Assembly (NCBI RefSeq): GCF_026151205.1 | Contig: NC_087074.1 | Coordinates: forward strand, 19,684,740-19,748,739 | DNA from: Bolinopsis microptera | Taxonomy: Eukaryota; Ctenophora; Tentaculata; Lobata; Bolinopsidae | Direction of reading: 5' to 3' | Length of the DNA: 64,000 nucleotides | Shown: piece after piece, positions 25,701 to 28,700 of the stretch | Layout of the letters: each line of letters starts with the position of its first letter | Numbering within the stretch: the first letter of the stretch is position 1 | The notes under the pieces: generated by a model | Seen by the model: the letters and a program-made list of their open reading frames with translations, nothing else | Told to the model about the DNA's origin: nothing | Databases searched by the model: none | Position numbers and translations under genes: made by a program

Positions 25701-28700
25701 AGCTCATAGTTTTAGAATTGTATAGATTAACGTTGGTCATTTAGCCATCTAACAATCGATCGTGCCGTAATATATGGCCAGAGAATAATAGGGTCTTGGA
25801 AATTCTATAGTTGTTCAGTGGGTCGATCGACTGAACACGTTTGCACTTGGTATTTAAACTTACCAGTAGTTTATTTATGTTATGCACCGATGATAATGCA
25901 ATTAGGATAACAACTAGGTAAGCCGGGAGTCTAATTCAAAACACACCTCACACCGTACACACCTCCAATCAGTAATTTTACTATTTGGTAGACCGGGTAT
26001 TTTGGCGGGAATTCTGTTCCCACGGCACTGTTCTGATAGAAGCTACTTCTACTAATGGTCCCAGAGGAACGGCCGTAAAGTAGCCAGACTTCTTGTCTCC
26101 TGTACTGGCAGACACTTGCAGATTAAAGTTAGAAATTTCGCTATGCTATAAATATAATTGCTCTCGGAATTGAACAAACTCCTACTTATCTGTATCCTTT
26201 CTAAATTCGTTAGAGTTTCATGGACTGGGGAAAAATAATCGGTACAGTCTCCCTGCTTGTGTAATTAAGCAATGAAAACAATCCAAAATTATCACATATG
26301 ACATAATTATAAGTTGTAATAGCAGAAATTTTCTAACCGTACATTCACCCGCCACTGTTCAAGAACCTATATCACTGTTTAAAATCATGACGTGAGCACT
26401 GTACAACCAATCAGCTATTCCTTTAGTTAGGATGATAGCCAAAACTATAAGGATTTTGGAGAACTAGGGTAATAGTCATAATTCTAAAATTTGAGTGAGT
26501 TACACGTGTTTTATTGACGATGATAAACATTTGTAATGTAAATTACGCTATGCAAGCGCGCACTGAGGGACTTTATGACGTCACGAGGCCACAGCTTATT
26601 ATTGCAATAACACGCGTTACACGTACGCTAGAGAGTTGGTTCTTTCGGCGATACGATTCTTTACCAGTTTGTCACAGCTGATTTAAATCTTAGCCAAATT
26701 GGAGACTACAAATTTTTCAGTTAACTGGTCCTTTAATTATACTCATCACTAGCTCACCTAGCCTCAGCCATTCTGCACATCTCATTGTTAAACATTCTAT
26801 GAGAATAATTCTAGGTTTATACTAGGTTTATACAATATACATCGTGAGATACTGCGTAAGACACTGCGTAAGTTAATTAATAATTAATAGTCGTGATAAA
26901 CAAAACTATCGTGTAAGGCAACGTTATATACTACGTTAATGAATAATCCAACCTGAGAGTACTTCAAGGCTACCAATTTGGCGAATTGTTCAGCTCAATT
27001 GCGGTGTTTTTTGTCTCAAATTTGCCGCACATAAAAACGTTTTGGGAAAGTATGGAATCGCATTAAAATACACCTACATGCTGCCTCTATCAGTTGTCAC
27101 ATGTTTATTACAATTTATCAAAACAACAGCAATTATTGACATATCTTTCAGAGACAGGAACGTACATATTGAGCAATTACTGACATATCTTTCAGAGACA
27201 GGAACGTACATATTGAGCAATTACTGACATATCTTTCAGAGACAGGAACGTACATATTGAGCAATTACTGACATATCCTTCAGAGACAGGAACGTTCATA
27301 TTGAGCAATTACTGACATATCTTTCAGAGACAGGAACGTACATATTGAGCAATTACTGACATATCTTTCAGAGACAGGAACGTACATATTGAGCAATTAC
27401 TGACATATCTTTCAGAGACAGGAACGTACATATTGAGCAATTACTGACATATCTTTCAGAAACAGGAACGTACATATTGAGCAATTACTGACATATCTTT
27501 CAGAAACAGGAACGTACATATTGAGCAATTACTGACATATCTTTCAGAGACAGGAACGTACATATTGAGCAATTACTGACATATCTTTCAGAAACAGGAA
27601 CGTACATATTGAGCAATTACTGACATATCTTTCAGAAACAGGAACGTACATATTAAGCAATTACTGACATATCTTTCAGAGACAGGAACGTACATATTGA
27701 GCAATTACTGACATATCTTTCAGAGACAGGAACGTACATATTGAGCAATTACTGACATATCTTTCAGGGACAGGAACGTACATATTGAGCAATTACTGAG
27801 ATATCTTTCAGAGACAAGAACGTACATATTGAGCAATTACTGACATATATTTCAGAGACAGGAACGTACATATTGAGCAATTACTGACATATCTTTCAGA
27901 GACAGGAACGTACATATTGAGCAATTACTGACATATCTTTCAGAGACAGGAACATACATATTGAGCAATTACTGACATATATTTCAGAGACAGGAACGTA
28001 CATATTGAGCAATTACTGACATATCTTTCAGAGACAGGAACGTACATATTGAGAAATTACTGACATATCTTTCAGAGACAGGAACGTACATATTGATCTA
28101 CAACCTGCGAAAGAGTGCCACCGGAGAGCATGAGTTTGACTTCAAGAAGGATGCAACAGATATTTGCATTGTGGAGGACGAAACAACAACAGATAACATG
28201 CTGTACGCACCCCAGGATAGGATCAACACTAACCCTACTACGTATTACTCACTTCGGGTACGTTTCTTCCTTGATTTAATCTTGCTTCTTTGTGTGTTCT
28301 ATATTTCCTTTCTTTCATAATACTACTCTGATTTAACTATTAACGTTTCAAACTTTCAGGCATACTGTTCAATCCTGTTCCTCCGACCAAAGATGCAAAT
28401 ATTCGTGCGGAGCGTAAAAGTTAAAACTAAACTCATCAAGAAGTCACTCTCTAAACCTAGGGATACCTATAGGGAAAGCTCAAGGAGTAGACAGGGACTC
28501 AGAAAAATAGTGTTTGTTCAGTCTGAGACCGAGAATTATGGGATCATGATGTTACTACAGGAACAGACTTATTAAGAAGTTATGTCAAGAGTCGGATATC
28601 AACTAAGGGTGGGTGCTTGTTGTGATTTTTCATAGGATATTAAACATTACAATGCTGAATATCTTACCGCAAGTGTACATGAAGCTGTATTCTCGTTATT

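What the first reader, a model, noticed from the sequence alone, without database searches (positions are those of the whole stretch)
27140..28075. A splice acceptor amplified 22-fold in the MORC gene
A 44-bp minisatellite with exact periodicity consists of the branch/pyrimidine region, the AG and the first 20 or so coding bases of the MORC exon that starts at 28076. Only the last copy leads into open reading frame; in the others the coding piece runs into a TGA 10 codons in. The spliceosome thus faces 21 decoy acceptors. The array could tune MORC output through decoy use and nonsense-mediated decay, with length polymorphism as the dial.
Basis: partly seen in the sequence, partly recalled or inferred. 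Interest (0 to 1): 0.88.

Follow-up and report, generated by a model that had tools for sequence, protein, structure and literature searches.

The report
Minisatellite copying a splice acceptor ("mirage")
A short stretch spanning the end of an intron and the start of an exon has been copied 22 times in a row in a MORC gene, probably of a comb jelly; similar "mirages" are known from lancelets, where they reportedly do not disturb splicing, so this is a striking but known kind of repeat rather than a shown regulatory dial.

Summary
Window 27128-28095 is 22 copies of a 44-bp unit: 24 nt of intron 3' end (CTGAC, TTTCAG) plus the first 20 nt of a MORC3/4-type exon. Only the last acceptor (28076) continues the MORC frame; the other 21 reach a TGA at the tenth codon. 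A homologous gene copy about 260 kb upstream has the same array with 26 units, so the array is real and its length varies. The two copies are probably uncollapsed haplotypes, otherwise a segmental duplication. AG is intact in 48 of 48 units, about what chance allows (P 0.28). Downstream, probably in the same gene, a second array multiplies a splice donor (30645-31091; 9 versus 11 donors). At both arrays the exon-adjacent site is productive. Best reading: slippage-grown minisatellites seeded on splice sites and treated as intron, as in the "mirages" described in amphioxus, there reported not to disturb splicing. I found no evidence for a decoy/NMD dial, but no RNA could be examined. MORC frameshifts in the window at about 28.45-30.16 kb look like unpolished sequence. 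The genome is probably Bolinopsis microptera.

The parts
23673..23731 (+). MORC exon upstream of the intron that holds the array ([19 protein letters not shown] + A)
   Evidence: translation; aligned to MORC3 as part of the joined protein; acceptor tttcag, donor gtgagt
23732..28075 (+). intron of 4344 bp that holds the array; 2175 bp in copy B
23993..24279 (.). insertion absent from copy B; ends CAGTGGCGTAACG / CGTTACGCCACTG (transposon-like inverted ends)
24700..26730 (.). about 2-kb insertion absent from copy B; ends AAAGGACCAGTTAACTG / CAGTTAACTGGTCCTTT (transposon-like inverted ends)
27128..28095 (+). minisatellite: 22 units of 44 bp, each 24 nt of intron 3' end plus 20 nt of exon start
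27128..28051 (+). units 1-21: acceptor copies whose use would bring a stop at the tenth codon
   Evidence: 21 of 21
28076..28257 (+). MORC exon; acceptor of unit 22 is the only one of 22 that keeps the frame
   Evidence: donor CGG|gtacgt
28455..30160 (.). stretch with a burst of 1-2 bp indels against copy B; breaks the MORC frame in the window; probably unpolished sequence
30455..30693 (+). predicted exon whose donor is multiplied downstream; probably the MORC C-terminal part (no Pfam match)
30645..31091 (+). second array (99 bp x 4.5) repeating the donor AAGTCAG|GTAACT or |GTTAGT: 9 donors, only the first keeps the frame
31276..31536 (+). predicted last coding exon (ends in TGA 31534-31536)

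Best explanation
The array is a 'mirage' minisatellite. A 44-bp segment that happened to straddle the intron 3' end and exon start of a MORC gene was tandemly duplicated and then grew and shrank by slippage or unequal exchange. Shown: the unit anatomy, 22 and 26 copies in two gene copies, the broken frame of every decoy, and the intact frame of the last acceptor. Inferred: the spliceosome mostly uses the last acceptor because only it is joined to a full exon body with its own donor (exon definition), so units 1-21 are removed as intron; some leakage to decoys, cleared by nonsense-mediated decay, is possible but is not a designed control.
For: Unit anatomy and frames. Homology supports 28076 as the joint that makes MORC3-like protein. 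The last unit adjoins a 182-nt exon with donor CGG|gtacgt. A homologous array in copy B has a different number and arrangement of units: 26, with a 5-unit block repeated three times and one 43-bp step, against 22 regular units; this is typical tandem-repeat turnover. A variant shared by both arrays (position 26, G to A; units 8, 9, 11, 12 in A and 9, 14, 19 in B) suggests the array predates the split. A second array multiplies a donor, and again the exon-adjacent site is productive: 1 of 9 in the window, the first 4 of 11 in copy B. Minisatellites are dense: 33 in 313,739 bp. Published amphioxus mirages have the same anatomy and are reported not to disturb splicing (passages).
Against: No transcript was seen, so use of 28076 is inferred. 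The 22 acceptors are almost identical in the 24 nt upstream and 20 nt downstream, so nothing local favours the last one; classic work on duplicated splice sites (recalled, not looked up successfully: one search found nothing usable) often favours the site nearest the donor, which would be the first decoy. Whether copies A and B are alleles or paralogues is unresolved.
Confidence: 0.75

Rival explanations
1. Decoy dial: upstream acceptors compete with 28076, the products stop early and are degraded, and array length sets MORC output.
For: All 21 decoys (window) and all 25 (copy B) give premature stops; in the window these lie about 197-1077 nt before the exon end, suitable for exon-junction-dependent decay. 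Every decoy keeps AG, and 47 of 48 units keep TTTCAG. Array length differs between the copies.
Against: AG intactness is expected by chance (1.27 losses expected, P(0)=0.28). Amphioxus mirages are reported not to disturb splicing. A donor array nearby has the same look. No RNA evidence.
Confidence: 0.08
2. Leaky burden: decoys are used at a real but unregulated rate, a mild cost tolerated because enough correct mRNA is made.
For: Decoys are near-identical to the true site; a donor-proximal site can win in duplicated-site constructs (recalled).
Against: Published mirages show no aberrant mRNAs (passage). No RNA data here.
Confidence: 0.14
3. Assembly artefact: the array or its copy number is an assembly error.
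For: The two gene copies may be a false duplication, and the window copy has error-rich stretches at about 9.7-11.1 kb and 28.45-30.16 kb. The paper on the probable source genome describes wtdbg, gap filling with TGS-GapCloser, haplotig purging and pilon (passage).
Against: Both copies carry the array with the same left flank and exon joint but different unit patterns. The array bins hold almost no small indels (1 in five 250-bp bins). At about 1 kb it is short for long reads.
Confidence: 0.03

Closest known systems
Amphioxus 'mirages' (Adh3, globins BflGb6 and BflGb9, troponin C, PGBD5)
   Same: Tandem minisatellite-like duplications of an intron-exon boundary with splice signals in the units, length differing between haplotypes (BflGb6: 6 and 3 units), homogenised units, acceptor and donor types both known (passages of PMC3087553; PMC3902484).
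   Different: Here probably a ctenophore, a MORC gene, shorter units (44 bp; BflGb6 150-160 bp, Adh3 10-72 bp) and more copies (22 and 26) than BflGb6. Normal splicing was shown by RT-PCR in amphioxus globin, not here.
Human 6-16 (IFI6/G1P3) minisatellite with multiple splice donors (Turri, Cuin and Porter 1995)
   Same: A minisatellite that repeats a splice site; resembles the donor array at 30645-31091.
   Different: Donors, not acceptors. Only its title was seen, in two reference lists; the paper is not held.
Internal tandem repeats at exon-intron boundaries of human segmental duplications (PMC2812944)
   Same: Minisatellite expansion at an exon-intron border in duplicated genes, changing gene structure (passages).
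   Different: There mostly about 4 repeats of about 30 bp, some creating new introns.
Poison exons / NMD-coupled alternative splicing (recalled)
   Same: Alternative acceptor use would add a premature stop.
   Different: No conservation or use of the decoys shown.

Membership tests
mirage minisatellite | tandem units each holding intron end plus exon start | tested here: met
   22 of 22 units in the window, 26 of 26 in copy B
mirage minisatellite | splice signal present in the units | tested here: met
   AG 48 of 48, TTTCAG 47 of 48
mirage minisatellite | one authentic boundary at the array edge continues the real exon | tested here: met
   last acceptor 28076 only
mirage minisatellite | length instability between haplotypes | tested here: inconclusive
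   22 versus 26 units, but allele versus paralogue is unresolved
mirage minisatellite | units homogenised within an array | tested here: met
   5-unit block repeated three times in copy B, absent from A
mirage minisatellite | regular splicing undisturbed in mRNA | not testable with these tools
   no RNA data
NMD-coupled decoy splicing | premature stop on decoy use | tested here: met
   21 of 21 and 25 of 25
NMD-coupled decoy splicing | decoy sites under selection | tested here: inconclusive
   no AG lost, P(0)=0.28 under uniform variation; intronic versus exonic variants 10/1152 versus 18/960, Fisher P=0.055 on non-independent units
NMD-coupled decoy splicing | decoy use and degradation in RNA | not testable with these tools
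   no RNA data
MORC3/4 family (host gene) | GHKL ATPase, S5 domain, CW zinc finger | tested here: met
   Morc6_S5 1.1e-39 (joined exons, its later part from copy B), zf-CW 1.6e-17 (copy B), PDB MORC3 4.8e-89; the GHKL exon alone scored 22.4, below the cut-off of 25

The most novel reading that the evidence does not exclude
Paired arrays at an acceptor and a donor of one MORC gene act together as copy-number-set decoys: longer arrays divert more transcripts to frame-broken products, so fast-mutating minisatellites make heritable, reversible steps in the dose of a chromatin silencer.
Probability: 0.06. Interest if true: 0.8.

Novelty: new member of a known kind. Interest (0 to 1): 0.36.

Why it matters
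It would extend splice-site minisatellites from lancelets to, probably, ctenophores, with 22-26 near-identical acceptors in a row. That is a natural test of how the spliceosome chooses among identical 3' splice sites: locally the sites are the same, so only position and exon context can decide. It also warns gene annotators that such arrays and unpolished patches can look like pseudogenes or alternative exons.

Tried and rejected
Pseudogene reading of the window copy: considered because the frame breaks after about 28455. Rejected as less likely because small indels against copy B jump to 7-21 per 250 bp in the bins from 28500 to 30000 (introns included) and are mostly 0-2 elsewhere, while copy B reads through as intact MORC. 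Bins 9750-11000 show the same burst (6-19). Bins 19000 and 20000 also score high (19 and 11), but with 13-16% substitutions, next to the 33-bp array, where the alignment is probably out of register. Bins at 56750, 59750 and 60250 hold 4-6.

Structure that hides decoys: 4 of 4 stretches folded no better than shuffles.

Splice motifs enriched in local minisatellites: 3 of 33 arrays for donors and 2 of 33 for acceptors at P<0.05, with a home-made score from recalled weights and shuffled units. That is no clear excess; the 44-bp arrays themselves score P 0.09 and 0.12 for acceptors.

Extent of the duplication by probes of 1.2-1.5 kb: 3 of 6 had a collinear partner 242-273 kb away. One hit a dispersed repeat, one matched best 421 kb away plus repeats, one showed no collinear partner, only partial and repeat matches. 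These searches score a capped number of candidates.

Literature on mirages: 'mirage minisatellite' 0 papers; mirage + amphioxus + minisatellite 2; ctenophore + minisatellite 2, neither on this by its title and abstract start. I found no report of ctenophore mirages in these searches only.

An LRR-like look of an exon beside another array was not confirmed: 0 Pfam families at E up to 10.

Full report
What is there. TRF reports 27128-28096, period 44, 22 copies, 97% matches. In the correct register there are 22 units of exactly 44 bp, 27128-28095. Each unit is AGCAATTACTGACATATCTTTCAG (intron end) plus AGACAGGAACGTACATATTG (exon start). Over the window array and the second array, AG is kept in 48 of 48 units, TTTCAG in 47, CTGAC in 43. 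Reading CTGAC as a branch-point-like motif is recalled knowledge. The same TTTCAG ending is seen at 28360, 23673 and 31276.

The host gene. The predicted exons join to a protein that matches MORC3 of the PDB at E=4.8e-89 and Pfam Morc6_S5 at 1.1e-39; the CW zinc finger (1.6e-17) was read from copy B; the GHKL exon alone stayed below its cut-off (22.4 against 25). The MORC3 alignment runs through the junction [16 protein letters not shown], so 28076 is the acceptor that gives MORC protein. Acceptors 1-21 all reach TGA at the tenth codon after the junction codon, about 197-1077 nt before the exon end.

A second copy. Searching two units in the same genome gave matches at two places only, C3:19711911-19712835 (the window) and C3:19452902-19454045 (counts are lower bounds). 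The second array (copy B) has 26 units and the same left flank and exon joint, and 25 of 25 decoys stop early: 21 at the same codon, three later and one sooner. B carries a 5-unit block three times and one 43-bp step; A does not. A variant at position 26 occurs in both. So the array existed before A and B split and has been reshuffled since.

Alleles or paralogues. A and B are collinear from window 9.7 kb to its end, with interruptions, mostly at 0-4% substitutions per 250 bp in the well-aligned stretches, with large insertions in one copy only; parts (for example 45.5-54.5 kb) aligned poorly, at 17-28% substitutions in most bins. Three of six probes elsewhere found collinear partners 242-273 kb away; three did not. 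No N was seen in C3:19435000-19684739 or in the window, but gap filling would remove Ns. The 13 largest contigs sum to 258.07 Mb of 264.65 Mb, 97.5%, the largest being 26,206,493 bp. This fits Bolinopsis microptera: 265 Mb, 13 chromosomes, largest 26.2 Mb (passage of PMC11797021); 13 scaffolds with 97.23% of bases, estimated 1n size about 254 Mb (passages of PMC10232365). The scaffold number differs (232 here, 346 in that table). The species is therefore an inference. I think uncollapsed haplotypes more likely than a real duplication (about 2:1, judgement).

Sequence quality. Small indels between A and B jump in two stretches, about 9.7-11.1 kb and 28.45-30.16 kb, and are mostly 0-2 per 250 bp elsewhere (exceptions in Tried and rejected). 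In the second stretch the window breaks the MORC frame while B is intact. This looks like raw-read filling; the paper names TGS-GapCloser. The array lies outside it.

A second mirage. At 30645-31091 an array repeats AAGTCAG|GT: 9 donors in the window, 11 in B. Spliced to the exon at 31276, only the first of 9 keeps the frame in the window, and the first 4 of 11 in B (each added 54-bp unit adds 18 residues); the others stop early. That this exon belongs to MORC is likely from position but unproven (0 Pfam families). At the acceptor array the last site, and at the donor array the first, is productive: in each case the one touching the exon body. Exon definition explains both with the arrays left as intron (inference).

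Is there a dial? Nothing in the sequence asks for one. The AGs' survival is expected by chance (1.27 losses expected, P(0)=0.28). Variants are somewhat rarer in the intronic part (10/1152 against 18/960, Fisher P=0.055), but units are not independent. The RNA does not fold specially. The neighbourhood has 33 minisatellites in 313,739 bp (A and B twins both counted), so some will sit on splice sites by chance. Splice motifs are not clearly over-represented in them. Against this, the acceptors are locally indistinguishable, so some decoy use is quite possible.

What is known. [quoted passage not shown] A passage of PMC3902484 adds PGBD5 and troponin C and says Adh and TnC mirages do not generate aberrant mRNAs. 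The human 6-16 donor minisatellite is known here by title only. So the finding is a new member of a known kind, notable for copy number, for acceptor and donor arrays close together, and for its probable phylum.

Noticed in passing
window 30645-31091; copy B C3:19456592-19457163: Second splice-site minisatellite, repeating a donor: 9 donors in the window, 11 in copy B.
   Followed up: yes
window 28455-30160 and about 9700-11100: Bursts of 1-2 bp indels against copy B, probably unpolished sequence; the first breaks the MORC frame.
   Followed up: partly
C3:19390368-19547499 and C3:19641000-19820698: Collinear duplication on one scaffold at the places probed or aligned, probably uncollapsed haplotypes.
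   Followed up: partly
C3:19521073-19521659 (in L022), minus strand: 12-bp unit x49 holding GTAAGTAC, directly after an open frame ending in a GTAAGTA donor-like site; perhaps a third mirage; no Pfam match for the exon.
   Followed up: partly
C3:19548531-19549696 (in L025): 12-bp unit x97 (ATATCTCACCTG) ending roughly 20 bp before a CCCACAG acceptor-like site on the plus strand; its reverse strand repeats CAGGTGAGA (87 copies).
   Followed up: partly
window 23993-24279 and 24700-26730: Two transposon-like insertions with inverted ends in the MORC intron, absent from copy B.
   Followed up: partly
window 17895-18725, minus strand: Open frame with a homeodomain (Pfam E=2e-20).
   Followed up: no
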